64,000 bases of DNA from contig JADGAR010000004.1 of the NCBI GenBank assembly GCA_015231915.1, forward strand, positions 1-64,000. Direction: 5' to 3'. The translations under genes and the position numbers were made by a program. Below the pieces are notes generated by a model. The model saw only the letters and a list, made by a program, of their open reading frames with translations. It was not told the origin of the DNA and searched no databases. Positions 16,909 to 44,535 of the stretch are shown here, in pieces. Source of the DNA: Magnetococcales bacterium (GTDB lineage Bacteria; Pseudomonadota; Magnetococcia; Magnetococcales; Magnetaquicoccaceae). Every line of letters begins with the position of its first letter. The stretch's first letter is position 1.

Positions 16909-18222
16909 ATGACCCTGGAAGATCTTATCGGTGAGACCGGGCGGGGGGTGGCCAGGTTCCTGGAACTCGATCTGCGCGAGGATCAGCGGGCATTGCTGCA
17001 AGATGCCCAGGATGCGACCATCGATCCGGGGGACAAGATCGCGGCTGTGGAGGCATTGCTCGTCCGCAACCGCATCCCGTCGGCGTACGTGTTGGCCATG
17101 GTGTGCGCCAATGCCGGGTATCGCACCCTCCCCGTCGCGGTGGCGCTGGCGGTTGGCGGCCTGGTGTTTCGCAACCGGCAGGAGGAGGAGCGGGGGTTGG
17201 AGTTGTTGCGGCTGGAGGCGGCAACCCGCGCCCCTTTGTCGCCCGGCTGCCGGGAGGAGGGGATGCTCGCCGAGACGGTGCGTTTTCTGGATGCCATGTT
17301 CGTCCGCGATGCGCTTCGGCTCCGGGAGCTTTTCGCCACCCTGGCGCCGGGGATCTTCCCCCAGGGCAAGGCCGGGGGCGAGCCGGTCTCCTTTTTGGCC
17401 CTGGCGCGCGAGATGGCGCCCGTCAAGGTGGTGGACGTGGGGTCCGGACCGGAACCGGGCAAACCGCCGTTCTATCATCCCCTGCGGGAGGTGGGGGTGG
17501 AGGTGATCGGTTTCGAGCCGAATCCGGGCGAGGCGGGCAAGCTGGCCGGGCTGCAAAGCCAGGACGAGATTTTTCTGCCGGTTGCCCTCGGCGATGGGGG
17601 GCGGCATGCGCTCCATTACTGTTTCAGTCCCGGCATGAGTTCGCTTTTGGCACCCAACCCGGAGGTGCTGGGGTTGTTCCATGGGTTTCCGGAGTGGGGC
17701 AGGGTGATGAAAACCGCGCCGGTCGATACCGTGCGGCTGGATGACGTGCCGGAGACCGCCGGGGCGATGTTCCTGAAACTGGATGTCCAGGGCGCGGAAG
17801 GATTGGTGCTCGACCATGCCCCGTTGCGCCTGGCCGAGGCGGTGGTGGTGCAGGTGGAGGTGGAGTTTTTGCCCATGTATGCCGGCCAGCCTTTGTTTTC
17901 CGAGGTGGAGCAACGGTTGCGCGCCTGCGGCTACATGCTGCACCGCTTTCATCCCCTCTCCAGCCGCATGGTCCGTCCGCTGCGGGGCGCGAACCTCTAC
18001 GCCGGCATGAGCCAGTTGCTGTGGGCGGATGCCGTGTTCATCCGCGATCTCACCCGGCTGGAGCGGTTGACGGATCGCCAGTTGGTGGTCATGGCGGCGA
18101 TCCTGCATTACTGTTATGGTTCGCACGACGTGGTCGTGCATCTGCTGACCGAGTACGAACGCCGGAGCGGTCGCGCGGCTGGCGCGGATTATCTGGCCCT
18201 CATCCGCCATCAGGGAACTTGA
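16909..18222 (+). CDS. FkbM-family methyltransferase with an extra N-terminal domain
   Basis: 437 residues. The catalytic part (about 165-370) has the S-adenosylmethionine loop VKVVDVGSGPE, then VIGFEPNPGEAG, and the FkbM signature MFLKLDVQGAEGLVL. Such enzymes O-methylate sugars in glycans and natural products. Residues about 20-115 form a separate helical domain with RIPSAYVLAMVCANAGY and a glycine-containing AVALAVGGLVF segment. The same domain ends both GT41 proteins downstream. A GGAGG-rich site precedes the start. Four bases separate this stop from the start of the first GT41 gene, so they form one operon. Confidence 0.85.
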   Translation: MTLEDLIGETGRGVARFLELDLREDQRALLQDAQDATIDPGDKIAAVEALLVRNRIPSAYVLAMVCANAGYRTLPVAVALAVGGLVFRNRQEEERGLELLRLEAATRAPLSPGCREEGMLAETVRFLDAMFVRDALRLRELFATLAPGIFPQGKAGGEPVSFLALAREMAPVKVVDVGSGPEPGKPPFYHPLREVGVEVIGFEPNPGEAGKLAGLQSQDEIFLPVALGDGGRHALHYCFSPGMSSLLAPNPEVLGLFHGFPEWGRVMKTAPVDTVRLDDVPETAGAMFLKLDVQGAEGLVLDHAPLRLAEAVVVQVEVEFLPMYAGQPLFSEVEQRLRACGYMLHRFHPLSSRMVRPLRGANLYAGMSQLLWADAVFIRDLTRLERLTDRQLVVMAAILHYCYGSHDVVVHLLTEYERRSGRAAGADYLALIRHQGT

Positions 18223-18225
18223 GCG

Positions 18226-20598
18226 ATGAACTGGGATGCCACGATGGAGCAGGCGGCCTCACTCGCCGGCGCAGGGGAGCGGGAGCCGCTGGCCACGCTC
18301 TACCGGGAGTGGCGGGAAGCCGGTTCGGATCCGTCCCTGGCGTATCTCGGGCACTATAATTTCGGGGTGCACATGATGACGGCGGGGGATTGGCCCGGCG
18401 CGCGTGCTGCCTTCGAGGAGGCGATCCGCCTGCAGCCCGATTGTTATCCGGCCTGGATCAATCTGGGCACCGTGCTGGCCAGCATGGGCGAGCAACAGGA
18501 GGCAGTGGCCTGCTGGCAGGGGATGACGGAACGTCTCCGTGGCGTGACGGGCGAGACGATCAACTATAAAAACACCGCCCTCAAGCAGATTGGCCGGGTG
18601 CTCAAGTGGGAAGGGGCGGAACGGGCGCTGCGGGGGTGCCTGGAACTCGATCCCCGGCAGCCGGACGCGCTGGTGCATTGGCTCAGTTGGCGTCAGGAGC
18701 AGTGGAAGTGGCCGGTGATCGAACCGTTTCCGGGCTGCGACCATGCCCATCTGCTGCGCGGTTTTTCTCCCATCGCCCTGCAGGGGTACACGGACGACCC
18801 CATGCTGCTGCTCGCCCATGCCCGTCATTATTTCCAGGAGAGCGTGGGCCAGGCCGGGCGCCATTTCCTGGATGCCCACGCGGCGTTGCGGCGCGCGCCT
18901 TCCGCGCGGCCCAGGATCGGCTATCTGTCGTCGGACCTGCGCTATCACGCCGTGGGCTTCCTGACCGTGGAGGTGTTCGAGCTGCACGACCGGGAGCGGT
19001 TCGAGATCTTCGTCTACGACTGCGGTCCCCCCCCCGAGGATCCCATCCGCCTGCGGGTGCGCGCTGCGGCGGAACATTGGCTGGACGTCACCGGATTGAG
19101 CGACGAGGCTCTGGCCGAACGCATCGTCGCCGATCGCATCGAGCTGCTCATCGACCTGAACGGCTACACCCAGCACGCCCGCACCCGGATGCTCACCATG
19201 CGACCGGCCCCGGTGATCGTCAACTGGCTGGGCTTTGCCGGGAGCTTGGCCAGCCCCTGTCACCACTATCTCATCGCCGATGCGTTCATCATTCCCCCGG
19301 AGCATGAGAAATTTTACGCGGAGCAGGTGTTGCGCCTGCCCTGCTATCAGCCGAACAACCGCCATCGTGGCATTTCCGGGCATCTTCCCGACCGTGGGGA
19401 TTTGGGACTGCCGGAAGGGGTGATGGTGTACGGCTGCTTCAACGGGGTGCGCAAGATCACGCGGCAAACCTGGGAGCTGTGGAGCCGGATCCTCGCCCAG
19501 GTCCCGGAGAGCGTGCTGTGGCTGCTGGAGGAGAACGACTGGGCCAAACGACGGGTGCGGGAACTGGCGGCAGAACAGGGGATCGACCCGGCGCGGATCC
19601 ATTTCGCCCCCATGGTGCCCAATCACGAACACCTGGCCCGCTATCCCCGGATGGACCTGATGCTGGATACCTTTCCCTACGGCGCGCACACCACGGCCTC
19701 GGACGGGTTGTGGATGGGGGTGCCGGTGGTGACCCGGCCCGGCCTGGGGTTCGCGTCGCGGGTGTGCGGTTCCCTGCTGACCGCCGTGGGGCTGCCCGAG
19801 CTGATTTGCGCCAGCGGGGAGGAGTACGTGGCCCGTGCCGTGGAACTCGGCACCCACCGGGAGCGGCTGACCGCCCTGCGGGAACGGCTGCGCGCCATGC
19901 GCGACGCCTCGGTGCTGTTCGACACCCCTGGGCTGGTGGGCCATCTGGAGGGGCTGTTCGACCAGATGGTGGCCGCCTTCCGGGCCGATGCCGTGCCGCG
20001 TCCCGATCCGGCCAATCTGGACCATTATCTGGAGATCGGCTGCGACCTGGATCGTGAGGGCGTCCGTTTTTTGACGCTCGCGGATTTGCAGGATGGCTAC
20101 CTGGAGCGGTTGCGCGCCAGGGACCGGCTGGCCGCGCTCCGGGACGACCCGCGGCTGTGGAACGAAACCGCGCGCGCCGCCCGGCGCCCGGATCTGCAAA
20201 CCATGGTGCGGCGCCTGGACGAGGCCGATGACCCGGATGCCTTGCAGGCGTACCTCGCGGAACCGGGGCACGATCCCATGGAAATGATTTATGCGATTGC
20301 CGAACTGCTGCCCAGGATGCGGCTGCGCTCGGCCTTTCTGCTGGCCGTGAAGGTGGCCGACGCGGGATACTGGAACCCGGTGGTGGCCGTGGCCCTGGCG
20401 GCGGGTGGGATGTTGTTCGGCAACCCCCGCGAGGCGCAGCGCGGGGTCGAGGCGTGGCGCGCCCGCATCGCGGAAATCCCGGAGCCGGCGCGCACCCGCA
20501 TCCTGCTCGACATCGTGGCCCCGGTGCGCGACTTCCTGATGGGAACCGAGGTCGGGCGGGCGCATCCGGAGAGAACGGCGGGCCTGTTTGGCATATAA
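18226..20598 (+). CDS. SPINDLY/OGT-type (GT41) glycosyltransferase with TPRs and a C-terminal shared domain
   Basis: 790 residues. Residues 30-130 hold TPR-like helices (HYNFGVHMMTAGDWPGARAA). The GT41 catalytic region spans about 228-585. It has the conserved His in SSDLRYHAVGF (H241), LLIDLNGYTQHARTRML, RPAPVIVNWLGF, and the uridine/phosphate-contacting Lys in FNGVRKIT (K410, equivalent to K842 of human OGT). The DTFPYGAHTTASDGLWMGVPVV region binds the nucleotide sugar. Residues about 670-790 are the domain shared with the FkbM gene. The family adds sugar from a UDP- or GDP-type donor to Ser/Thr of cytoplasmic proteins; the substrate here is unknown, and flagellin is a common target in bacteria. 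Confidence 0.85.
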   Translation: MNWDATMEQAASLAGAGEREPLATLYREWREAGSDPSLAYLGHYNFGVHMMTAGDWPGARAAFEEAIRLQPDCYPAWINLGTVLASMGEQQEAVACWQGMTERLRGVTGETINYKNTALKQIGRVLKWEGAERALRGCLELDPRQPDALVHWLSWRQEQWKWPVIEPFPGCDHAHLLRGFSPIALQGYTDDPMLLLAHARHYFQESVGQAGRHFLDAHAALRRAPSARPRIGYLSSDLRYHAVGFLTVEVFELHDRERFEIFVYDCGPPPEDPIRLRVRAAAEHWLDVTGLSDEALAERIVADRIELLIDLNGYTQHARTRMLTMRPAPVIVNWLGFAGSLASPCHHYLIADAFIIPPEHEKFYAEQVLRLPCYQPNNRHRGISGHLPDRGDLGLPEGVMVYGCFNGVRKITRQTWELWSRILAQVPESVLWLLEENDWAKRRVRELAAEQGIDPARIHFAPMVPNHEHLARYPRMDLMLDTFPYGAHTTASDGLWMGVPVVTRPGLGFASRVCGSLLTAVGLPELICASGEEYVARAVELGTHRERLTALRERLRAMRDASVLFDTPGLVGHLEGLFDQMVAAFRADAVPRPDPANLDHYLEIGCDLDREGVRFLTLADLQDGYLERLRARDRLAALRDDPRLWNETARAARRPDLQTMVRRLDEADDPDALQAYLAEPGHDPMEMIYAIAELLPRMRLRSAFLLAVKVADAGYWNPVVAVALAAGGMLFGNPREAQRGVEAWRARIAEIPEPARTRILLDIVAPVRDFLMGTEVGRAHPERTAGLFGI

Positions 20599-20646
20599 TG
20601 CGCATCGCGGGTTCGAACACCAACTTCTAGTCGTGGCACCGGGCTG

Positions 20647-21933
20647 ATGACGACTCCCATCCATGTATTGCTGGTCTCCCTGCGCGATCCTTTCATGGAT
20701 TCGGATCGGGTCATGCCCCCGCTGGGGGTGATGGCCCTGCACGCCTATCTGCTGGAACTGGGCATCGCCTCCTGTCTGGAGATCGATTTTCGTTTCGACC
20801 GGCTCGAAGCGTATGCCCATTATACCCATATCGGGATATCGTGCATGACGCCGCAAAAGGAGCAGGCGTACAGAATCCTGCGTGATATCAAGGCGCGATA
20901 TCCAGACATCCGGGTGATTCTCGGCGGGCCGCACGCCAGATACTACCAGCAGGAGTGTGTTCGCCATCCCTTCGACCACATCGTGGTGGGGGACGGGGAG
21001 CTGGCCCTGGAGGAGATCCTGACCGGTCGGATTCCGCCGGAGGAGCGGGTCGTCTCCCGCCCGGTCTCCGAGGAGCAGATGAACCGCTTCCCCGTGCCGT
21101 ACCGGGAGCCGGGATTTTTGCGCAACTACGATTTCGTGTTCCAGGGGATTCACGCCTCCACGCTGCTGACCGCCAAGGGGTGTCCGATGTCCTGCGCCTT
21201 CTGCGAGGACGCCCGCACCAAGGTGAAGAAATATCGCCCGGAGTACGTGGGCCGGCAGATCGAGCAGATCAAGCAGGCCGGCTTCGAGGGGGTGATGTTC
21301 TTCGACGATGTCTTCACCCTTTCTCCGCATCGGGTGCGGGAGTTGACGGCGGAAATCGCCTCTCATCGGATCCGCTACCGCTGTTTCGGCCATGCCCGCA
21401 CCATGACCCCGGAGATCGCCGGCCTGTTGAGCAGGACCGGTTGCATCGAAACCGGCGTGGGGGTGGAGTCCGGGTCGCAAAAGATCCTCGACGCGGTGAA
21501 CAAGAAGACCACCGTGGCGCAGAATCGCGATTATGTGCGGTTGTGCAATTCGTTCGGCATCCGGGTCAAGACGTTTCTCATGCTGGGCCTGCCTGGAGAG
21601 AATGAGGCAACCATCGCGGAGACCGAAGCGTTCCTGGCCTTTCTGATGGGGGAGCGTTTTACCGGTCACGACGGTCGGACAGGCTGCAACGATTTCGATC
21701 TGACGATCTATTTTCCCTACGTGGGCACCGAGATCCGGCGCCGGATCGATGCCGACGAGGGGCAGGGGATCGACCTCTGGTTCACGAGCGATCCGGATCG
21801 GATGAGCGGCTTCTACAAGGGGGTGCATGGCAGTTCCGAGGTGGCGGTGCGCACCTCTGCGCTGTCGGCGGAGGCGCTGATCGCTGCCCAGCAGCGCCTG
21901 ACGCGGACATACAAGAGAACAGGGGGTCCATGA
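20647..21933 (+). CDS. Radical SAM enzyme with B12-binding-like N-terminal domain
   Basis: 428 residues. Residues 5-140 form a Rossmann-type cobalamin-binding-like domain (HVLLVSLRDPF, MPPLGVMALHAYL, VILGGPHARYY, VVGDGELALEEIL), but the base-off His of the D-x-H-x2-G motif is absent. The radical SAM core (about 165-370) has the 4Fe-4S cysteines in KGCPMSCAFCE (C-x3-C-x2-C), plus FFDDVFTLSP and the GVGVESGSQ signature. It lies between two GT41 genes and ends in an ATGA overlap with the second, so it is co-translated with it. Methylation, rearrangement or cross-linking of a glycan or peptide is possible; the substrate cannot be told. Confidence 0.85.
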   Translation: MTTPIHVLLVSLRDPFMDSDRVMPPLGVMALHAYLLELGIASCLEIDFRFDRLEAYAHYTHIGISCMTPQKEQAYRILRDIKARYPDIRVILGGPHARYYQQECVRHPFDHIVVGDGELALEEILTGRIPPEERVVSRPVSEEQMNRFPVPYREPGFLRNYDFVFQGIHASTLLTAKGCPMSCAFCEDARTKVKKYRPEYVGRQIEQIKQAGFEGVMFFDDVFTLSPHRVRELTAEIASHRIRYRCFGHARTMTPEIAGLLSRTGCIETGVGVESGSQKILDAVNKKTTVAQNRDYVRLCNSFGIRVKTFLMLGLPGENEATIAETEAFLAFLMGERFTGHDGRTGCNDFDLTIYFPYVGTEIRRRIDADEGQGIDLWFTSDPDRMSGFYKGVHGSSEVAVRTSALSAEALIAAQQRLTRTYKRTGGP

Positions 21934-24356
21934 TGGAAGAGGCGATGGTCGAGATGACGCTGTACGATCTGGTTGCCCTGGCCGACCAACTGCTGCGGGA
22001 AGACCGGGGTGGGGAGGCCATGGATTTGTACCAGGGCTGGCTGGGCCGGCAGGGGGATCACCCGTTGGCGCACATGGTGTGGTTCAATCTGGGTTCGGTG
22101 CGGTTGTCCCTCGGGGATCCGTCCGGGGCGCGGGATGCCCTGGAGGAGGCGATCCGGCTGCAACCCGATTTTTATGCCTCCTACATCAATCTGGGCAACG
22201 CCTGTGAGCGTGCCGGCGCCCCGGTGGAGGCGGTGGAGGCCTGGCAACGCCTGGTGGCGCGTCTGCCGGCAGTGACCGGGGAAAATGTCTCCTATCTCAC
22301 CTCGGCGCTCAAGCAGATTGCCCGCCTGGGCACGTCGGAGCAGGCCGATGCGGCGATGCGGCACAGCCTGGAGATCGATCCCCACCAGCACGAGGTGATG
22401 ATGCATTGGCTCAACGGGCGGCAGGGGATGTGCCGCTGGCCGGTGATCGAGCCGTTTGGCCGCTGCGACCGCAAGCGGTTGCAGGAGTCGTTCGCGCCCC
22501 TCTCCCTGGCGGCCTATACCGACGATCCCATGTGGCAGTTGACCAATGCCTGGCACTATCAGCGTCTGACCGTCGGGCAACCGGACCGGCACTTCCTGGA
22601 TCGCCACGAGGCGCTGCGCGTGGCGCCCGGGCCGCGTCCCCGGGTGGGATATCTCTCTTCGGATCTGCGCGGCCATGCCATCGGTTATCTGATGGTGGAG
22701 CTGTTCGAGCAACACGACCGGGAGCGGGTGGAGGTTTTCGTCTACGACATCGGCCACGGCGACAACCATCCGCTGATCCGCAGCCGCATCCGGAATGCCG
22801 TGGAACATTGGCGGGATCTGCACGGCACGTCGGACGACGCTGCCGCCGCGCAAATCCTCGCCGACCGGATCGAGATCCTCATCGACGTGAACGGCTACAC
22901 CAACAGCGCCCGCACCCGGATGCTGGCCATGCGCCCGGCCCCGGTGATCGTCAACTGGCTGGGCTATCCGGGGAGCATGGGCACGCCGTATCATCATTAC
23001 ATCATTGCCGATCCCTTTCTCGTTCCGGAGGCGTTGGAGGTCTTCTATTCCGAGCGGGTGGTGCGTCTGCCCTGCTACCAGGCCAATGACCGCAAGCGGG
23101 TGGTGGACCCGCACCAGCCCACCCGCGCGGAGGTGGGGCTGCCGGAAGGGGTCATGGTGTACGGGTGTTTCAACGAGTTCAAGAAGGTCACTCCGCTGAC
23201 CTGGCGGCTCTGGATGGAGATTCTGGGCCAGGTGCCGGAGAGCGTGCTGTGGCTTTTGTCCGAAAACGCCACGCTCATGGAGCGGTTTCGCGGGCTGGCC
23301 GTGCAGGCCGGGGTGGATCCGGGGCGGCTGATCTTTTCGCCGCGTCTGCCCAACCATTCCCACCTGGCCCGCTATCCTTTGCTGGACCTGATGCTGGACT
23401 GCACCCCCTACGGGGCGCACACCACCGCCTCGGACGCGCTGTGGATGGGGGTGCCGATCCTGACGCTGGCCGGCTTGAGTTTCCCGGCGCGGGTGTGCGG
23501 CAGCCTGGTGAGCGCGGCGGGATTGCCGGAACTGGTCTGTGAGACACCCGAGGCGTTCGTGGCCCGTGCGGTGGCGTTGGGTCACGACCGGGTCGCGCTG
23601 GCGGGCTATCGGCAACGGCTGCGGGAGGGACGCGATAGCTGCGTGTTGTTCGACACCGCCGCCCTGGCCGACCGACTGGAGGATCTGTTCGACGCCATGA
23701 GGATGGATTTCCGGGAGGGGCGTCTGCCCAGGCCGGATCTGACCAATCTGGCGTTGTATCGGGAAATCGGCATGGAGCTGGATCAGGAGGGGATGTGGTT
23801 CGGTTCGCGCGCCAATCTGGAGGCGGCCTATCTGGAAAAATTGCTCGAGAGGGATCGCTTGTGTTACATTCCCGAGGATGGGCGGCTGTGGCATGCGTCA
23901 TCCAGGGAGCGTGCGGCGCGGCGCAATCCTGATTTTTACGAAAGCCTGGTGTTGTTGGACGACGCCGGGGATCTGGATGGGATGCTGGCGCTCGTGCAGC
24001 GCTCCGGTCAGGATTTGCGGGAGATGGGGCGTGCCGTGGTCCTGTTGCTGGAAGGGGAGCGTTGGCTGGCTGCCTATCTGGTGGCCATGTTGCTGGCCAA
24101 CAACGGGATTCTGGAGGTGACCGGGGGGATCGCCCTGTGTGTCGGGGGGGTGGCGTTCGGCAACCCCTACGAGGTGGAGCGCGGGTCCGGCGCGTTGCCG
24201 GGGCAAATGGCGGCGTTGTCCGCCGGGGAGCGGGCCGACCTGGCCAGGCGGATCGTGGCCCCCGCCGTGCGGGTATTGCGGAGCGGACGTTTCGTCCAGG
24301 CAGCGCCGGAGCGGGCGAACCCGGTGGTGGCGTTGTTGGAAGCGGCCATATCATGA
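21930..24356 (+). CDS. Second SPINDLY/OGT-type (GT41) glycosyltransferase with C-terminal shared domain
   Basis: 808 residues and a paralogue of the protein encoded at 18226. N-terminal TPR-like helices (VWFNLGSVRLSLGDPSGARD) are followed by the GT41 region (about 235-600) with SSDLRGHAIGY (H249), LIDVNGYTNSARTRML, FNEFKKVT (K419) and DCTPYGAHTTASDALWMGVP. The C-terminal part (about 610-808) matches the first enzyme in layout, including LAAYLVAMLLANNGI and GGVAFGNPYEVERG. The ATGA overlap with the radical SAM gene couples their translation. Two diverged paralogues with intact residues suggest separate targets or donors. Confidence 0.85.
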   Translation: MMEEAMVEMTLYDLVALADQLLREDRGGEAMDLYQGWLGRQGDHPLAHMVWFNLGSVRLSLGDPSGARDALEEAIRLQPDFYASYINLGNACERAGAPVEAVEAWQRLVARLPAVTGENVSYLTSALKQIARLGTSEQADAAMRHSLEIDPHQHEVMMHWLNGRQGMCRWPVIEPFGRCDRKRLQESFAPLSLAAYTDDPMWQLTNAWHYQRLTVGQPDRHFLDRHEALRVAPGPRPRVGYLSSDLRGHAIGYLMVELFEQHDRERVEVFVYDIGHGDNHPLIRSRIRNAVEHWRDLHGTSDDAAAAQILADRIEILIDVNGYTNSARTRMLAMRPAPVIVNWLGYPGSMGTPYHHYIIADPFLVPEALEVFYSERVVRLPCYQANDRKRVVDPHQPTRAEVGLPEGVMVYGCFNEFKKVTPLTWRLWMEILGQVPESVLWLLSENATLMERFRGLAVQAGVDPGRLIFSPRLPNHSHLARYPLLDLMLDCTPYGAHTTASDALWMGVPILTLAGLSFPARVCGSLVSAAGLPELVCETPEAFVARAVALGHDRVALAGYRQRLREGRDSCVLFDTAALADRLEDLFDAMRMDFREGRLPRPDLTNLALYREIGMELDQEGMWFGSRANLEAAYLEKLLERDRLCYIPEDGRLWHASSRERAARRNPDFYESLVLLDDAGDLDGMLALVQRSGQDLREMGRAVVLLLEGERWLAAYLVAMLLANNGILEVTGGIALCVGGVAFGNPYEVERGSGALPGQMAALSAGERADLARRIVAPAVRVLRSGRFVQAAPERANPVVALLEAAIS

Positions 24357-24392
24357 ACTTTTTGTGAGTCGGTCCAGTAAGGGAGTTTGTAC

Positions 24393-25166
24393 ATGAAAGC
24401 CGTAATTCTTGCCGGCGGGTACGGGACGCGCATCAGCGAGGAGACCCTGTACAAACCGAAGCCCATGGTGGAGATCGGCAGGCAGCCGATCCTGTGGCAC
24501 ATCATGAAGATCTACTCGGCCCATGGGATCAACGAATTCGTGATCTGTCTGGGGTATCGGGGGTATGTGATCAAGGAGTATTTCGCCAATTATTTTCTGC
24601 ATATGTCCGATGTCACCTTCGACATGGAGCACAACCGGATGGAGGTGCATCAACGTTACGCAGAACCGTGGCGGGTGACCCTGGTGGACACCGGGGAGAG
24701 CACCATGACCGGGGGCCGGGTGCGACGCATCCTGCCGTATGTCAAGGACGAGGAGCATTTCTGCCTGACCTATGGGGATGGTCTGGCGGATGTGGACATC
24801 AGCGCGTTGATCCGGTTTCATCGGGAGCAGAATACCATAGGCACGCTGACCGCAGTGCAGATTCCCGGACGGTTCGGGCGCCTGAAGATCGTGAAGAACA
24901 AGGCCAAGGACTTCCTGGAAAAGCCGGTGGGCGAGGGGGGGTGGATCAATGGGGGGTTCATGGTGTTCTCGCCGAAGATGATCGAGCTGATCGACGGGGA
25001 TGACACCACCCTGGAGCGCGGCCCGATGGAGCGGTTGGCGCGCGGTGGCCAGTTGTCGGCCTTTCAGCACGAAGGGTTCTGGCAGCCCATGGACACGGCC
25101 CGGGACAAGAGCTATCTGGAGGGGTTGTGGACGAGCGGGCAGGCCCCATGGAAGGTCTGGACATGA
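24393..25166 (+). CDS. rfbF: Glucose-1-phosphate cytidylyltransferase
   Basis: 257 residues. It makes CDP-glucose from CTP and glucose 1-phosphate. The nucleotidyltransferase opening MKAVILAGGYGTRISEET is followed by KPKPMVEIG, a metal-binding LTYGDGLADVD, and LEKPVGEGGWINGGFMVF. The start at 24393 follows AAGGGAG by about eight bases; a TTG two codons upstream is unlikely. Its ATGA overlap with the next gene links it to CDP-glucose 4,6-dehydratase, the next enzyme of the pathway. Confidence 0.95.
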   Translation: MKAVILAGGYGTRISEETLYKPKPMVEIGRQPILWHIMKIYSAHGINEFVICLGYRGYVIKEYFANYFLHMSDVTFDMEHNRMEVHQRYAEPWRVTLVDTGESTMTGGRVRRILPYVKDEEHFCLTYGDGLADVDISALIRFHREQNTIGTLTAVQIPGRFGRLKIVKNKAKDFLEKPVGEGGWINGGFMVFSPKMIELIDGDDTTLERGPMERLARGGQLSAFQHEGFWQPMDTARDKSYLEGLWTSGQAPWKVWT

Positions 25167-26257
25167 ATGCCGGTTTCTGGCGGGGCCGGCGTCTGTTTTT
25201 GACCGGCCATACGGGTTTCAAGGGGTCGTGGCTGGCGTTGTGGCTGCGCGAGCTGGGCGCGGAGGTGACCGGGTATGCCCTGGCCCCCCCCACGCAGCCG
25301 AGTCTGTTCGAGATGGCGCGGGTGGCCGACGGCATGGCATCATCGGTGATCGCCGACATCCGGGACGGGGAGGCATTGGCCGCTGCCATGGAGCGGGCGG
25401 CCCCCGAGGTGGTGGTGCACATGGCCGCGCAGCCGTTGGTGCGGGCCTCGTACCGGATCCCGGTGGAGACCTATGCCACCAACGTGATGGGATCGGTCCA
25501 TCTGCTGGAGGCGGTGCGGCGCACCCCGTCGGTGCGGGCGGTGATCAACGTGACCACGGACAAGTGCTACGAGAACAGGGAGTGGCATTGGGGATACCGG
25601 GAGAACGAGCCGCTGGGGGGGTATGATCCCTATTCCAGCAGCAAGGCGTGTGCGGAACTGGTCACTTCTGCTTACCGGAACTCCTTTTTTCCGGAGGGGG
25701 AGTATGCCCGGCATCGGGTGGCGGTGGCCTCGGCGCGGGCCGGCAACGTGATCGGCGGCGGCGACTGGGCCGAGGATCGGTTGCTGCCGGATTTCGTGCG
25801 GGCGATCCTGCGGGGCGAGCCGGTGGTGATCCGCAATCCCCATGCGACGCGCCCCTGGCAGCATGTGCTGGAGCCGTTGTCCGGGTATTTGTTGCTGGCG
25901 CAACGTCTGGTGGAGGAGGGGCCGCGTTATGCGTCGGCGTGGAATTTCGGTCCCCTGGACGCGGATGCCCGACCGGTGGGTTGGGTGGCGCAACGGATGT
26001 GCGCCTTGTGGGGGGAGGGCGCCGAGTATCGTCAGGAGGGCGGGGAGCATCCCCACGAGGCCTCTTTCCTGAAGCTGGACATCTCCAAGGCGCGCGCCGG
26101 GCTTGGCTGGCAGCCCCGCTGGGATCTGGAGACCGCCCTGGCGTCCATCGTCACCTGGACCAAGGCGTACCGGGCCGGGGCGCGCATGGATGCGGTCTGT
26201 CTGGAACAGATCGCGGCCTACGCCGCTCATGCGGATCGAGGGTCTCTTGGCGAATAA
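25163..26257 (+). CDS. rfbG: CDP-glucose 4,6-dehydratase
   Basis: 364 residues. It converts CDP-glucose to CDP-4-keto-6-deoxyglucose, the precursor of 6-deoxy and 3,6-dideoxy sugars. The short-chain dehydrogenase features are the NAD loop LTGHTGFKGSWLALWL, the catalytic Y-x3-K in DPYSSSKACAE, and NVTTDKCYEN. The substrate-binding NVIGGGDWAEDRL motif is typical of RfbG. The start at 25163 gives a four-base overlap with rfbF and has GGAAGG upstream. No RfbH-type dehydrase or epimerase follows, so later steps must be encoded elsewhere. Confidence 0.95.
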   Translation: MNAGFWRGRRLFLTGHTGFKGSWLALWLRELGAEVTGYALAPPTQPSLFEMARVADGMASSVIADIRDGEALAAAMERAAPEVVVHMAAQPLVRASYRIPVETYATNVMGSVHLLEAVRRTPSVRAVINVTTDKCYENREWHWGYRENEPLGGYDPYSSSKACAELVTSAYRNSFFPEGEYARHRVAVASARAGNVIGGGDWAEDRLLPDFVRAILRGEPVVIRNPHATRPWQHVLEPLSGYLLLAQRLVEEGPRYASAWNFGPLDADARPVGWVAQRMCALWGEGAEYRQEGGEHPHEASFLKLDISKARAGLGWQPRWDLETALASIVTWTKAYRAGARMDAVCLEQIAAYAAHADRGSLGE

Positions 26258-28187
26258 CGTCGATTCGTTCGACGAGGCGTCACGGCGGCTGGTGGACCTG
26301 TTTGCCCGGAACTGTTACCGGGAGTTGGAGTCCCTGGCCAGGGAGATGGTGGCCGATGCGCCGGAGTTCGGTTTCGGCTGGAAGGCCCTGGGCGTGGCGC
26401 TGCAACAACAGGGCAGGGATGCCGAGGCCGTGGATGCGCTGGCACGGGCCTGGGAGTTGCTGCCGGAGGATGGCGAGCTTCAATATAATTTTGGTTATGT
26501 TTTGCAGCGGCTGGAGCGGTTTGGCGAGGCGGAGGTGTGTTATCGCCGGGCCGTGGCGTGGCAACCCGGGGCGGTGAATGCCTGGCTGAATCTGGGATTC
26601 GTGTTGTTGCGGAAAGGGCGTCTCGAGGAGGCCGAGGCGGTTTACCGGCAGGCGCTCGGTCCTTGTCCGGACGTTGCGGATGTGTACCATAATCTTGGGA
26701 TGGTGTTGCAAGCGGGGCAACGTCCCGACGAGGCGTTGGCGGCGTTTCGTGATGCGGTGCGCCTGCAACCGGACCATGCCGAGGCCTGGTGCCAGCTGGG
26801 GATGTTGCTGCACCAGCAAAAGCGGATGCCCCAGGCCGAGAGCGCCCTGCGGGAGGCGATTCGTTGCGGTGTGGGAGGCGGCGCGGCCCACGGCGATCTT
26901 GGCGTGTTGTTGTACGAATGCCAGCGGCTGGACGAGGCGGAAGCCGCCTTGCGGGAGGCGATACGCCGTCAGCCGGACGACATGGCCGCCTTGGCCAATC
27001 TGGGGGTTTTGTTGATGGAGCGGCGCGCCCCGGTCGAGGCCGAGTCCCTGTTGCGGGAGGCGTTGCGTTTGCGGCCCGACGATCCTGATCTTTGTTTCAA
27101 GCTGGGCAGTTGTTTGTGGGGACAACTGCGCACGACGGAGGCGGTGGAGGCCCTGCGGGAGTGCGTGCGTCTCGATCCGGGGCATGCGGAGGCCCATTAT
27201 CAATTATCTTTATTTTTGTTCTATCTGGGTCGCGTCGAAGAGGCTTATCAGAGCATAGGGCAGGCGTTGCGTATCCGTCCGGATCTCGATCAGAAATTTT
27301 TGATAAATCATGTAAAATATATCGATCACAATGATGCCGCCTGGCAGATGGCCACTGTGAACGCAGAGATCGAGCGGGCCTTTTGGCATGTGGCGGCCCG
27401 GAACCCTGGGGATTCTTTGGAGTTGCATCAAAGCCTTTTGTGTTTGAAACAGTGTCGGCGTGGCATCATGCTGTATTTTTGCCATGACCGGTTCGTCGGG
27501 AGGGCCTTGGGGCGCCACGGTGAATTTTCGGAGGGCGAGGTGGAGTTGTTCTCTGCGGTGGTGGGCGCCGGACAGACCGTGCTGGAGGTGGGGGCCAACA
27601 TCGGCGCGCATACGGTATGGTTGGGTCAGTTGGTGGGGGCGACCGGATCGGTGATCGCCTGCGAGCCGCAACGTTTGGCGCATCGGCTGCTTGAGGCCAA
27701 CTGTCGTCTCAATCGGCTGGAGTGGTGTCGTCCCTTGCTGCTGGCGTTGGGGAGCGAGCGGGGGACGATTGCGGTGCCGGAGGTGGATCTGGGCTGCGAG
27801 AACAATGCCGGCGGGCTGTCGCTGCTGGATGGCGGCGGCGGGGTGGGGGGAGGGCATGTGCCGCTGGAAACGATTGACGGGATGGCGTTGCCGGCGTTGC
27901 ATTTCCTGAAGGTGGATGTGGAGGGGATGGAACTGGAGGTGCTGATGGGCGCCAGGGAGACCATCCGCCGCTTGCGACCGGTTCTGTACGTGGAAAACGA
28001 CCGGGTGAGCAGGTCGTCCCGGCTCGTCAGCTTGTTGCGTTCCATGGGGTATCTCCTGTACTGGCACAAGCCGCCGTTGATCGATTTGCTGTGTTCGATC
28101 AACCTGCTTGCCATACCGGAAGAAATCGGAGTGCCTCTTGGGAGTGAATTGTCATCTTCTGTACGCTGTTTGACATTGTGCGAATGA
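26229..28187 (+). CDS. TPR protein fused to an FkbM methyltransferase
   Basis: 652 residues. Residues 15-370 are about ten TPR units with the usual W/L/G/Y/A/F/A/P spacing (for example AWLNLGFVLLRKGRLEEAEAV). Residues about 430-620 are an FkbM methyltransferase with the SAM loop LEVGANIGAHTVWLG, acidic IACEP, and the FkbM signature FLKVDVEGMELEVLMGARE. The start at 26229 overlaps the end of rfbG by 29 bases. The repeat scaffold probably holds the protein or glycan that is methylated. The short linker between the two halves is A+T-richer than the rest, which may mark the fusion joint. Confidence 0.85.
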   Translation: MRIEGLLANNVDSFDEASRRLVDLFARNCYRELESLAREMVADAPEFGFGWKALGVALQQQGRDAEAVDALARAWELLPEDGELQYNFGYVLQRLERFGEAEVCYRRAVAWQPGAVNAWLNLGFVLLRKGRLEEAEAVYRQALGPCPDVADVYHNLGMVLQAGQRPDEALAAFRDAVRLQPDHAEAWCQLGMLLHQQKRMPQAESALREAIRCGVGGGAAHGDLGVLLYECQRLDEAEAALREAIRRQPDDMAALANLGVLLMERRAPVEAESLLREALRLRPDDPDLCFKLGSCLWGQLRTTEAVEALRECVRLDPGHAEAHYQLSLFLFYLGRVEEAYQSIGQALRIRPDLDQKFLINHVKYIDHNDAAWQMATVNAEIERAFWHVAARNPGDSLELHQSLLCLKQCRRGIMLYFCHDRFVGRALGRHGEFSEGEVELFSAVVGAGQTVLEVGANIGAHTVWLGQLVGATGSVIACEPQRLAHRLLEANCRLNRLEWCRPLLLALGSERGTIAVPEVDLGCENNAGGLSLLDGGGGVGGGHVPLETIDGMALPALHFLKVDVEGMELEVLMGARETIRRLRPVLYVENDRVSRSSRLVSLLRSMGYLLYWHKPPLIDLLCSINLLAIPEEIGVPLGSELSSSVRCLTLCE

Positions 28188-40495: not shown

Positions 40496-42481
40496 GGCCG
40501 GACTCCAGCCCTCCGGGAGTCGTTCCCGACGGGTGGCGGCTTGCAGGGCCGCCTCCAGGAAGGTCTCCAACTCCCGCACCGCCCGCTGATCCGCATAGAG
40601 TTTATGGGCGTTCTCCCGGCAGGCCCTGCCCAGGGCCTGTCGGCGGGGCGCGTCCCGGGCCAGGTCCAAAGCCAGGGCCGCATAGGCCTCCCGGCTGGCC
40701 GCGACGGGCGGGTCGGCCAGTCCCATCTGTCGATAGCCCCCGGTCGCCACCCGACCCCGCATGAACCGTCCCGGCCAGGTGACCATCGGAATGCCCAGCC
40801 CCATGGCCTCGTAGAAGGTGTTCCCGCCGCCGAAATGGAACGGATCGAGCATGAGATCCATGTGCGCGGAAACCTGCAGAAAGCGCGGGGTGGCCATGCG
40901 GGGCAGCAGGAGCGTCCGTTCCAGGAGCACGGGGTGGGTGTGTTCCCAGCGTTTGCGCAACAAAGTGGTCCAGGAGGGTTGCTGTCCCTCCACGAGCACG
41001 ATGCGTGCCTCCGGGTCGCCCGTGACGATGGCCGCCAAGGCCGCGTCGAAGTCGGGATGCAGCTTGAACAGGCTCTGGAGGCAGCCGAACAGCGTTCCGT
41101 CAGCGGGCAGGCCCAGTTCCTCGCGGGAGGGCAGCGGCCTGGGCGCCTCCTTGACCGGGGAGTAGCGGCAGGGGAGCACGGAGAGGCGGATCAGGCGTTC
41201 GCTGTAGCAGCTGTCGGCTCCTTGCGGCTCGATGAGCGCGCTGGAGAGAAAATAGTCCATCTCCGGCAGCCCGGTGGTATCCGGATGGCCCCAGGCCACC
41301 ACCTGGACCGGCGCCAGGCGGGCATGGGCCAACAGCAGGCTCTCCGGGGCCATGCCGATGTCGGGGTAGAACAGGATGTCCGGGGCCAGTTCGGCGACTT
41401 GCCGTTGATGGTTGGCCACCCCCCCGGTCAGGGTGATCGACCGGTCGGCCAGGGCGTCGAGATGGGCGCGCAAGGGATCGGGTTTGTCCGGGTGGAAATG
41501 GAGGACCGTCACCTCGAAGCGGCGACGGTCGAGGTGGTGGATGAAGCCGTGGAAAAGCTTGCCGATGGTGTGCGCCGCCAGGTTGCGGGAGACGAACCCG
41601 ATGCGCGCGCGGCGTCCGGTCACGCGGGGGGGCTGCCAGAGGGCGAGATGGGCGGCGGTATGGACCAGCCCGGGGGATTTGCGTCGCAGCATGTCGGCCA
41701 GGGACGCCATGATCGCGCGGTCGTCTTCGTCGTGATAGGCCAGATAAAAGGTGAGCAGGTTGAGTTGGTCGATGTCGTCGAACTCTCCGGGCATGGCGAG
41801 CAGGCGGGCGATTCCCTCCCGGTAGTGGGCGCGCCACAGGGCGATCTCCTCGCGGGAGGCCGGGATGGCCGGCAGCAGCAGTTCGGCCAGCAAAAGCGCC
41901 TTGCGCCCTTCGGGGCTGCCTTGGCCGGCCAGCCGGAAACTGGTCTCGGCATCTTGCCAGCGGCCCTGCCACATGCAGAGATTGCCAAGGTTCACGGCGG
42001 CCCCGAAATGGTGCGGGGCCAGCCGCAGGGCCTGCCGGTAGGCCGCCTCGGCCCGCTCCGGTTCGCCGATTTCCGTCAGCAGGTTGCCAAGATTGTTCCA
42101 GGCGGCGATGTGTGCGGGCCGCAGTGCGGTGGCCTTCTGGCAGCAGGTCGCGGCTTTGGCGAACTCCTGTTTTTCCCGCAGCAGCGTTGCCAGCCGGAAC
42201 CACGCCTCGGCGGCTGCCTCGGTTTGGCCGGTCAGTTGCAGCGCCTTGGCATGGCTCTCCCGGTATCCGGTGTGTCCGGGATGGATCGCCAGGGCCGCCT
42301 GCAGATGGGGCAGGGCGGCTTTGGGGTGGTGGCGCTGCAATTCCAGCACGCCCAGGTTGTGATGGGCATCCGCCTGGCGCGCATCCTGGGCGAGAATCGC
42401 CTCATAGATTCCGGCGGCCTCGGCCAGACGGCCTGCCCGCTGGTGTGCCACCGCTTCTTTCAGGAGCGCCTCATCCTTCAT
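40475..42481 (-). CDS. TPR-GT41 glycosyltransferase (third of a coupled trio)
   Basis: 668 residues. TPR units fill about 5-200 (for example HHNLGVLELQRHHPKAALPHL). The GT41 region (about 290-660) has GFVSRNLAAHTIGK (the conserved His), VQVVAWGHPDTTG, LQSLFKLHPDFD holding the expected Lys, and LDPFHFGGGNTFYEAMGLGIPMV. Compared with the other GT41 enzymes it is shorter in the middle. The start at 42481 overlaps the preceding stop as ATGA. It is the last gene of the leftward trio and its end overlaps rne. Confidence 0.8.
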   Translation of the reverse strand: MKDEALLKEAVAHQRAGRLAEAAGIYEAILAQDARQADAHHNLGVLELQRHHPKAALPHLQAALAIHPGHTGYRESHAKALQLTGQTEAAAEAWFRLATLLREKQEFAKAATCCQKATALRPAHIAAWNNLGNLLTEIGEPERAEAAYRQALRLAPHHFGAAVNLGNLCMWQGRWQDAETSFRLAGQGSPEGRKALLLAELLLPAIPASREEIALWRAHYREGIARLLAMPGEFDDIDQLNLLTFYLAYHDEDDRAIMASLADMLRRKSPGLVHTAAHLALWQPPRVTGRRARIGFVSRNLAAHTIGKLFHGFIHHLDRRRFEVTVLHFHPDKPDPLRAHLDALADRSITLTGGVANHQRQVAELAPDILFYPDIGMAPESLLLAHARLAPVQVVAWGHPDTTGLPEMDYFLSSALIEPQGADSCYSERLIRLSVLPCRYSPVKEAPRPLPSREELGLPADGTLFGCLQSLFKLHPDFDAALAAIVTGDPEARIVLVEGQQPSWTTLLRKRWEHTHPVLLERTLLLPRMATPRFLQVSAHMDLMLDPFHFGGGNTFYEAMGLGIPMVTWPGRFMRGRVATGGYRQMGLADPPVAASREAYAALALDLARDAPRRQALGRACRENAHKLYADQRAVRELETFLEAALQAATRRERLPEGWSPASLLPGG

Positions 42482-44535
42482 TGCCCGCACCAGCGGCGCC
42501 ACATCTCCCGGTAGGCCGCTTCCACCTTGCCGACAAAACCGGGTTCGTCCATCAACGGGCTGTTCTCCATTTCGCCGCGCAGACCGGCGCGCAGCGTCGC
42601 CAGTCCGGGCAGGTCCGCAGCGAGTTCCACGGCCAGCGCCACGTATTCGGCTTCGTTGCGGGCGATCCATTCCTCGCGGCCCAGCACCCGCAGCAGCATG
42701 GCCCCCAGACCCCCGCCCACCTCGCGTTCCGCCATGGAGACCGCCGGCAGCCCCATGTAGAGCATCTCTGCCAGGGTGATGCCGGAATTGAGCGGAAAAC
42801 AGTCCAGGCCGATGTCGATGGTGCGCAGTTTGTCCCATGGCGAACTGGTGAAACCGATCTCCAGGCGCTGCCGTTCGATGCCGTGGGCCGAGAAGCGCGC
42901 ATAAAGCTCTTCCTGCATGCCGGGATCCTGGTAATTGCCCGAAAAGATCACCAGGCGCGTACCGGGCGTTTGGCGCAGGATCTCCGACCAGACCCGCACC
43001 ACCCGGTCGTTCATGCGGATGGAGCGGCCAAAGCTGCCGAAGGTCACATGACCTCGTGTCAAGGCCGGTAACGAAGAGACCATGCCCGCCTCCTCCTGGG
43101 GGCGATACACCAGGGCCGGGGGTGCGATGCGCCACACCCGCTCCAGGTAGAACGCCTCGGCCCCCGGCGGATCGGTGATGGAATCGGTCAGGGCGTAATC
43201 GATCGCCGACACCCCGGTGGTGAAGCCGTACAGCCAGGTCACCGCCAGCGGTGCGGGCTTGCGCGCGAAGACCGGCAGCCGGTTGTTGTTGGTATGACCC
43301 GCCAGGTCCACCAGCAGGTCGATCCCGTCCGCCCGGATCCGCTCGGCAAGGGCGGCGTGGGTCATGCCCCGCGTCGGGATCCAGTGGTCCACGTACCCCT
43401 TGTAGCGCAACGATACCGCGTCTTCCCGGGCGAGTTCGGCATAGGCGAACAGCTCGAACCGGTCGCCATGCCCGGCCAGCAGCGGCTCCACGAACCCCCG
43501 GATCGAGTGGTTGCGGAAATCGGGCGACACGTATCCCACCTTCAACCGGCGTTCGGGATCGCGGGGGTTGGCATGCCCCTGCCACTGGGCGCGCAGGGGC
43601 CGGACAAAGCGTTCGTCGTACTCCCGGTAGAGGGCGAAGGTCTCCGCCACGTCACGCTGGGGATGATAGAGCGCGCCGAACACCAGATTGAACATGGCGG
43701 GCGCGCAATCGGGCTGCAGGGCCAGCGCCCGGCGGCACAACGCCTCGGCCTCTTCATGGCGGCTGCGGACCAGCAGGATGGTGGCCAGATTGCTCATCGT
43801 ATCGGGCTGGTCCGGACTCAGCCGGAGCGCCTCCCGCAACGCCTGCTCGGCTTCCAGCGGTCGCTTCAGGTCGGTCAGCAGCACCCCGAGATTGTTGTAT
43901 GCCAGGGCGTAATCCGGGCGCAGGCGGATCGTCTCCCGGTAGGCGGCCTCGGCCTCCGGCATGCGTCCGGTGGCGGCCAGCAGCACGCCCAGGTTGTAAT
44001 GGCCCTCGGCGTATTCCGGCAGGAGGCGCAGCGCCTCACGATAGGCGGCTTCGGCCTCGGCGACATGGCCCTGCTGGAACAGGGCATACCCCAGCCAGCC
44101 GTGCGCCAGGCCCTCGGTCGGTTGCAGGCGGGTCACCTCCTGGAGCAAAGCGGCGGCGGCGTCGAAACGTTGCCTTTGGATCAGCAGATGGGCCAGATTC
44201 CAATGGGTCCGCACGAATCCAGGCGCCAGTGCCAACGCCTTGCGGAAGTGCGCCTCGGCCTCCTCCCAGCGGTGGAGTCGTTGCAGGGCGACCCCTGCGT
44301 TGATCCAGGTCGCCACATCCTCCGGCAGCAACGCCAGCGCCTTTTGCAGGCAGGTCACCGCCTCGGCCTCCCGGCCCTGTTCCTGCAGCGCGCTTCCCAG
44401 CGCCTTCCAGCCGAAGCCATGCTGCGGCTGGCGCGTCACCAGGTCGCGCGCCCGCTGTTCCAGTTCCGCGAAGCGCCGTTGCTCGAACAGTGTCACCAGT
44501 TGTGCGGAGGGGTCGGCAGCGGGTTTTCTTTTCAT
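42478..44535 (-). CDS. TPR-GT41 glycosyltransferase with an altered donor-site residue
   Basis: 685 residues. About eight TPR units (15-300) precede the GT41 region (330-685) with GYVSPDFRNHSIRGF, LLVDLAGHTNNNRLPVF and DCFPLNSGITLAEMLYMGLP. At the position where the other four GT41 proteins have the conserved Lys, this one reads FGSFGRSIRM, so Arg replaces Lys. That may alter donor choice or lower activity. The start overlaps the upstream stop (ATGA at 44532-44535). TPR units here are very similar to those of the neighbouring genes, suggesting recent duplication. Confidence 0.8.
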   Translation of the reverse strand: MKRKPAADPSAQLVTLFEQRRFAELEQRARDLVTRQPQHGFGWKALGSALQEQGREAEAVTCLQKALALLPEDVATWINAGVALQRLHRWEEAEAHFRKALALAPGFVRTHWNLAHLLIQRQRFDAAAALLQEVTRLQPTEGLAHGWLGYALFQQGHVAEAEAAYREALRLLPEYAEGHYNLGVLLAATGRMPEAEAAYRETIRLRPDYALAYNNLGVLLTDLKRPLEAEQALREALRLSPDQPDTMSNLATILLVRSRHEEAEALCRRALALQPDCAPAMFNLVFGALYHPQRDVAETFALYREYDERFVRPLRAQWQGHANPRDPERRLKVGYVSPDFRNHSIRGFVEPLLAGHGDRFELFAYAELAREDAVSLRYKGYVDHWIPTRGMTHAALAERIRADGIDLLVDLAGHTNNNRLPVFARKPAPLAVTWLYGFTTGVSAIDYALTDSITDPPGAEAFYLERVWRIAPPALVYRPQEEAGMVSSLPALTRGHVTFGSFGRSIRMNDRVVRVWSEILRQTPGTRLVIFSGNYQDPGMQEELYARFSAHGIERQRLEIGFTSSPWDKLRTIDIGLDCFPLNSGITLAEMLYMGLPAVSMAEREVGGGLGAMLLRVLGREEWIARNEAEYVALAVELAADLPGLATLRAGLRGEMENSPLMDEPGFVGKVEAAYREMWRRWCGQ

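What the first reader, a model, noticed from the sequence alone, without database searches (positions are those of the whole stretch)
16909..24356. Unlabelled domain of about 100 residues shared by an FkbM methyltransferase and two GT41 enzymes
Residues 20-115 of the FkbM protein, and the C-terminal about 120 residues of both GT41 proteins (near 670-790 and 680-808), share a pattern: (S/A)AxxLAxxxAxxGxxxxxxxVALxxGGxxFxNxxExxRG. It is N-terminal in one protein and C-terminal in the others, so it behaves as a mobile domain. It may dock the three enzymes to the same target or to each other.
Basis: seen in the sequence. Interest (0 to 1): 0.75.

Follow-up and report, generated by a model that had tools for sequence, protein, structure and literature searches.

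The report
Shared helical domain on sugar-modifying enzymes
In one family of magnet-sensing bacteria, a small all-helical, non-catalytic protein module absent from the family libraries searched has been attached to about ten different kinds of sugar- and methyl-transferring enzymes, at either end or in the middle, so it probably acts as a common docking handle for building cell-surface sugars, although what it binds is not known.

Summary
FkbM residues ~13-149, GT41a ~656-790 and GT41b ~668-808 are homologous (blastp E 4e-16, 1e-8, 1e-29), and the predicted helices coincide. No Pfam, NCBIfam, PHROGs, PADLOC or PDB family covers the segment, and Foldseek finds no confident fold match (best TM ~0.44, TPR-like proteins). 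The hosts are sugar or methyl-transfer enzymes or radical-SAM proteins (one host class is unassigned): GT41, CgeB-like Glyco_trans_1_2, GT61, GT2, an unassigned ~330-aa family, FkbM, Methyltransf_23, Methyltransf_24, radical SAM, and radical-SAM+GT4. The domain sits N-terminal, C-terminal, internal or in tandem. All 18 genomes of this Magnetococcales family ("Ca. Magnetaquicoccaceae" group) carry 1-12 copies. Elsewhere it occurs sporadically (1 other Magnetococcales genome; 7 of 73 in another family), and the readable hosts there are only the CgeB-like glycosyltransferase, probably the ancestral partner. Best explanation: a non-catalytic alpha-solenoid docking module that brings glycan enzymes to a shared acceptor or partner. 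The mobility is shown; the docking is inferred. Matched pairing of neighbouring enzymes is not supported: adjacent copies are no more alike than distant ones.

The parts
16909..18222 (+). FkbM-family methyltransferase gene (437 aa), host 1; FkbM catalytic part at residues ~193-342
   Evidence: ORF; PF05050 E=5.5e-16
16945..17355 (+). The shared domain, copy 1, N-terminal in FkbM (residues ~13-149)
   Evidence: blastp; HMM; AF2 helices 9-145 with pLDDT mostly 88-98 (80-83 at the end)
18226..20598 (+). GT41a, TPR + OGT-type glycosyltransferase (790 aa), host 2
   Evidence: PF13844 E=2.3e-71 and TPR hits
20191..20595 (+). The shared domain, copy 2, C-terminal in GT41a (residues ~656-790)
   Evidence: HMM; AF2 mean pLDDT 90.6, pTM 0.86
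20647..21933 (+). B12-binding radical SAM enzyme between the two GT41 genes; lacks the domain here (in a relative, L108, a radical SAM protein carries it)
   Evidence: PF04055 and PF02310
21930..24356 (+). GT41b, TPR + OGT-type glycosyltransferase (808 aa), host 3
   Evidence: PF13844 E=2.4e-72
23931..24353 (+). The shared domain, copy 3, C-terminal in GT41b (residues ~668-808)
   Evidence: blastp; HMM
24387..26257 (+). Nucleotide-sugar genes next to the hosts: RfbF-like cytidylyltransferase and RfbG-like CDP-glucose 4,6-dehydratase (names from sequence reading)
   Evidence: ORF translations; RfbG-like neighbours recur at 10 domain loci

Best explanation
The segment is a folded, non-catalytic, all-alpha (alpha-solenoid-like, about four helical hairpins) recognition domain. 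It is used as an interchangeable docking handle on enzymes that build or decorate surface glycans in one Magnetococcales family. Shown: homology of the copies, helical fold prediction, lack of any invariant catalytic-looking residue, repeated fusion to about ten enzyme types at either end or internally, and lineage-specific expansion. Inferred: it was first part of a CgeB-like (Glyco_trans_1_2) glycosyltransferase, then spread within the Ca. Magnetaquicoccaceae lineage by fusion to other enzymes, and it works by binding one common partner (an acceptor protein or glycan, carrier or scaffold). Enzymes carrying it would thus be concentrated on the same substrate, as the TPR domain of FlmG does for flagellin in Caulobacter.
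For: Homology far above chance. 10 copies in the window's genome. 102 copies in 95 open frames at E<1e-3. Hosts: GT41, Glyco_trans_1_2, GT61, GT2, FkbM, Methyltransf_23, Methyltransf_24, radical SAM, radical SAM+GT4 and one unassigned class. The same catalytic family carries it at different ends: domain-Methyltransf_24 in L009 and L054 but Methyltransf_24-domain in L097 and L107, catalytic parts ~40% identical. No standalone copy seen. Only a subset of paralogues is tagged: 2 of 27 GT41 open frames and 5 of 23 Glyco_trans_1_2 matches in the own genome, so it behaves as a selective tag. Confident helical model. No invariant residue in 88 copies, only Gly75 and Gly76 near-invariant, which argues against an enzyme. 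Gene neighbours include nucleotide-sugar enzymes. At the syntenic gamma-carbonic-anhydrase/kinase locus in relatives, tagged GT41 genes persist while companions change. Outside the family the readable hosts are CgeB-like. Precedent: FlmG's N-terminal TPR domain confers flagellin specificity (PMC7591256).
Against: No interaction was tested and no partner was identified. Some hosts (the Methyltransf_23 orthologue group) sit among housekeeping genes, not in a sugar cluster. AU tests do not reject a single origin of the domain within the Methyltransf_24 hosts (p=0.70) or the FkbM hosts (p=0.39), so independent gains inside one enzyme family rest on domain order only. A structural or stabilising role cannot be excluded.
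Confidence: 0.5

Rival explanations
1. Homotypic coupling domain: copies bind each other, so tagged enzymes assemble into multi-enzyme glycan complexes (like effector-associated domains in conflict systems).
For: Small, all-alpha, non-enzymatic, N- or C-terminal on diverse enzymes, many copies per genome, often in adjacent genes, as described for EADs (PMC7159879). Tandem copies occur in L058, L088 and L099. At the GT41 locus neighbouring copies are 32-40% identical.
Against: For EADs, copies in adjacent genes tend to be each other's closest relatives; here pairs under 20 kb apart on different host types average 29.1% identity against 29.1% for pairs elsewhere in the genome, p=0.48. No non-enzyme core component with a copy was seen.
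Confidence: 0.22
2. Structural or regulatory appendage: the domain stabilises or gates each host's own catalytic domain, with no external partner.
For: Always fused to a catalytic or probably catalytic protein, never alone.
Against: The same domain is fused to unrelated folds and at opposite ends of homologous catalytic domains, hard to reconcile with one conserved intramolecular interface; most homologous enzymes in the same genome do without it.
Confidence: 0.18
3. Degenerate tetratricopeptide (TPR) array, i.e. an ordinary member of the TPR superfamily.
For: Helical hairpins repeat every 34-35 residues (helices starting at 32, 66 and 101); Gly76, Phe/Tyr79, Gly88 and Leu92 fall where TPR positions 8, 11, 20 and 24 would lie; weak Foldseek matches are mostly TPR proteins, TM 0.4-0.44.
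Against: No significant Pfam TPR match for any of 88 copies; profile-profile comparison with the window's own TPRs gives probability 0.2%, no better than shuffled columns; no Foldseek match with E<=0.001. If true it would still be a binding module, so this changes the name more than the mechanism.
Confidence: 0.2
4. Chance or compositional resemblance in Ala/Leu/Gly-rich GC-rich proteins.
For: Sequences are alanine-, leucine- and glycine-rich; genome GC is ~64%.
Against: Composition-adjusted E-values 1e-8 to 1e-29, shuffles 12-36 s.d. below, 102 HMM hits confined to a few protein classes.
Confidence: 0.01

Closest known systems
FlmG of Caulobacter crescentus (TPR domain + GT-B O-glycosyltransferase; PMC7591256)
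   Same: Helical non-catalytic module attached to a glycosyltransferase; in FlmG it binds the acceptor flagellin and confers specificity.
   Different: FlmG's module is an N-terminal TPR domain on one enzyme; here an additional domain not recognised as TPR is found on about ten enzyme types, and the window GT41s also keep their own N-terminal TPRs.
Effector-associated domains (EADs) of bacterial conflict systems (PMC7159879)
   Same: Small, mostly all-alpha, non-enzymatic, N- or C-terminal on diverse enzymes, many copies per genome.
   Different: EADs couple effectors to a core NTPase/scaffold and neighbouring copies are most alike; here hosts are glycan-type enzymes, no core component was found and neighbouring copies are not more alike.
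Tetratricopeptide-repeat (TPR) domains
   Same: Helical hairpins with 34-35-residue spacing; weak fold resemblance.
   Different: No sequence-family, profile or confident fold match.
Glyco_trans_1_2 (PF13524, CgeB-like) proteins of other Pseudomonadota
   Same: Carry the domain N-terminally in the few readable genomes outside the family (L143, L144, L090, L110).
   Different: There the domain is confined to this enzyme type; in the window's family it has spread to many others.

Membership tests
Tetratricopeptide repeat (TPR) | Match to a TPR profile | tested here: not met
   Pfam scan of 88 copies, no significant TPR match; hhalign against the window's TPRs, probability 0.2%
Tetratricopeptide repeat (TPR) | Helix-turn-helix units repeating every ~34 residues | tested here: met
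   Predicted helices start at 32, 66 and 101; prediction only
Tetratricopeptide repeat (TPR) | Fold superposes on TPR structures (TM at least 0.5) | tested here: not met
   Best PDB match MamA TMq 0.44, E 0.25
Effector-associated domain (EAD) | Small non-enzymatic alpha-helical domain at N- or C-terminus of diverse enzymes | tested here: met
Effector-associated domain (EAD) | Copies in adjacent genes are closest relatives | tested here: not met
   29.1% vs 29.1% identity, p=0.48
Effector-associated domain (EAD) | One copy on a core NTPase/scaffold component | tested here: inconclusive
   No such host among 95 frames, but MAGs are fragmented and only places matched by the domain were read
GT41 (OGT-type) glycosyltransferase, host proteins | PF13844 match with N-terminal TPRs | tested here: met
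   E=2.3e-71 and 2.4e-72, TPR_2 hits
FkbM methyltransferase, host protein | PF05050 match | tested here: met
   E=5.5e-16
Acceptor-docking module (FlmG-like) | Direct binding of the acceptor | not testable with these tools
   No complex prediction or binding assay available

The most novel reading that the evidence does not exclude
A magnetotactic-coccus family has evolved a modular 'plug' for glycan biosynthesis: one helical domain, shared by about ten enzyme types (glycosyltransferases, methyltransferases, radical SAM), that recruits them all to a single scaffold or acceptor and so specifies one surface-glycan assembly pathway, comparable in logic to dockerins or polyketide docking domains but for cytoplasmic glycan decoration.
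Probability: 0.3. Interest if true: 0.8.

Novelty: new variant of a known kind. Interest (0 to 1): 0.57.

Why it matters
How bacterial sugar-modifying enzymes without lipid carriers choose the same acceptor is poorly understood. A portable domain on about ten enzyme types within one lineage gives a sequence handle for finding which enzymes act together and, by using the domain as bait, what they act on. It also gives function-prediction pipelines a domain missing from Pfam and NCBIfam, and it marks an expanded glycosylation machinery (27 GT41 open frames in this genome) in magnetotactic cocci.

Tried and rejected
TPR membership by profile-profile comparison, with shuffled-column controls: no signal; an earlier MAFFT alignment of overlapping TPR segments fell out of register and was not used. 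EAD-like matched pairing by neighbour similarity: not supported. Independent gains within FkbM or Methyltransf_24 hosts by AU test: single origin not rejected; the quick tree missed a better topology by 14 log units, so deep branches of the domain tree were not used. Phage or plasmid origin: no match in phages, plasmids or viral contigs. PHROGs and PADLOC: nothing significant. A shared unknown partner gene beside the tagged genes: none recurs beyond TPR/GT41 and nucleotide-sugar genes. FkbM full-length model: the domain folds, but the catalytic half is unreliable (pLDDT 26-60) because the alignment held two FkbM sequences, so nothing was concluded about domain-enzyme packing. The unassigned host class (cluster 2) could not be identified.

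Full report
CHECK OF THE OBSERVATION. The three genes are 16909-18222 (FkbM methyltransferase, PF05050 E=5.5e-16), 18226-20598 and 21930-24356 (TPR + GT41, PF13844 E about 1e-72), all on the + strand. With a proper HMM the domain is ~135-145 residues (FkbM ~13-149, GT41a ~656-790, GT41b ~668-808).

NOT A KNOWN FAMILY IN THE LIBRARIES HELD. Scans of the hosts and of 88 copies against Pfam gave only scattered single-member chance hits; the lowest, UQCC3 at 2.2e-5, matched one member and falls below that family's own cut-off (22.1 bits against 33.6) when the whole protein is scanned. NCBIfam, PHROGs and PADLOC gave nothing significant. A profile search of PDB sequences gave only weak partial matches, chiefly to designed helical-repeat proteins. 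AlphaFold2 with 88 copies models the GT41a copy confidently (mean pLDDT 90.6, pTM 0.86) as an all-helical bundle with hairpins spaced 34-35 residues. Foldseek against the PDB found nothing at E<=0.001, best TM 0.44 to TPR-type proteins; the viral structure library likewise. The FkbM copy has the same helices at a constant offset of 8 residues, pLDDT mostly 88-98; the shared alignment makes this partly expected. Conservation is mostly small and hydrophobic core-like positions; the only near-invariant residues are Gly75-Gly76, and the best conserved charged positions (Asp13 80%, Arg47 78%, Glu84 74%, Arg49 70%) are not invariant. This argues for a structural or binding module, not an enzyme.

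HOW FAR IT SPREADS. The window's genome (4.02 Mb, 133 contigs) has 10 copies on 5 contigs. The other seven hosts are domain+Methyltransf_24, domain+Glyco_trans_1_2 (three), domain+Glyco_trans_1_2+GT61, domain+Glyco_trans_1_2+GT2 and domain+GT2+GT2. In relatives I read 102 copies in 95 open frames (a further weak hit at E=0.005 was left out). Further hosts: GT41+domain, GT2+domain, an unassigned ~330-aa family+domain, domain+Methyltransf_23, Methyltransf_24+domain, domain+radical SAM, radical SAM+domain+GT4, a multidomain methyltransferase-GT-like+domain+Methyltransf_24 protein, and tandem domain+domain+Glyco_trans_1_2. Every host is a sugar-transfer, methyl-transfer or radical-SAM protein, apart from the unassigned class. 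Homologous Methyltransf_24 catalytic parts (~40% identical) carry it N-terminally in two genomes and C-terminally in others, which requires separate joining or rearrangement events.

PHYLOGENETIC RANGE. All 18 genomes of the window's family have it (1-12 copies); in the rest of the order one genome has three copies and another a marginal partial hit; in a 398-genome sample of the phylum it is otherwise found in one genome. That genome's family has it in 7 of 73 members, one copy each. The readable hosts outside the family are CgeB-like glycosyltransferases (46% and 40% identical to the Magnetococcales ones), so domain+CgeB-like GT is probably the older architecture and the wide recruitment is a feature of this family (inference). 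A scan of 84,980 species' genomes found only Magnetococcales MAGs, including WMHbin3 and HCHbin5, but with one short motif, so it undercounts. WMHbin3 is in the same genus as the window's genome by the tool's kinship and is placed with Ca. Magnetaquicoccus in the literature (PMC6783814). No phage, plasmid or viral-contig match.

CONTEXT. Next to the window hosts are genes read as RfbF- and RfbG-like nucleotide-sugar enzymes, and such enzymes recur at many domain loci. In at least six relatives the locus beside the gamma-carbonic-anhydrase-like gene holds domain-bearing GT41 genes, while the companions differ: FkbM and radical SAM in the window, a methyltransferase fusion in L051 and L052. The genome has 27 GT41 open frames, of which 2 carry the domain, and 23 Glyco_trans_1_2 matches, of which 5 do. 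The domain therefore marks a subset of paralogues.

MECHANISM. Repeated fusion to unrelated catalytic folds, at either end, restricted to one functional area and to a subset of paralogues, with no catalytic residues, is the usual signature of a recognition or docking module. The nearest experimental precedent is FlmG, whose N-terminal TPR domain binds flagellin and confers specificity while the C-terminal GT transfers the sugar (PMC7591256). I therefore favour binding to a common partner or acceptor (0.5). Homotypic coupling in the manner of EADs (PMC7159879) is the main rival (0.22), but its expected signature, neighbouring copies being most alike, is absent. TPR membership was tested and not met by sequence or fold criteria, though the hairpin period is TPR-like.

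LIMITS. The genomes are mostly metagenome-assembled and fragmented; no UniProt, InterPro or AlphaFold-DB search was possible, so 'undescribed' means absent from the libraries named. Domain trees have only 144 columns and weak deep support; AU tests did not reject single origins within the FkbM or Methyltransf_24 hosts. No interaction, localisation or activity data exist here.

Noticed in passing
Own genome, e.g. window 40631-45665 (-) and contig C133:1304-19526: GT41 (OGT-type) glycosyltransferases are greatly expanded: 58 HMM stretches in 27 open frames, seven of those frames on one contig. Only two of 14 named control genomes have any GT41 match.
   Followed up: partly
L072:372-1964, L088:1764-3296, L082:14730-16250 and relatives: A strongly conserved ~330-aa protein family (about 60-75% identical between genomes) with no Pfam, NCBIfam or PDB match, fused to the domain in 11 proteins; possibly an unrecognised glycosyltransferase.
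   Followed up: partly
L091:6074-9151, L092:6100-9321, L098:514-3735: Radical SAM enzyme and GT4-type glycosyltransferase fused in one ~1030-1070-aa protein with the shared domain between them.
   Followed up: partly
window 26103-28187 (+): A long TPR array fused to a second FkbM methyltransferase domain; lacks the shared domain.
   Followed up: no
L062:6806-11494 (-): A 1563-aa open frame with GT41 matches in four stretches (two catalytic units) followed by one copy of the shared domain.
   Followed up: no
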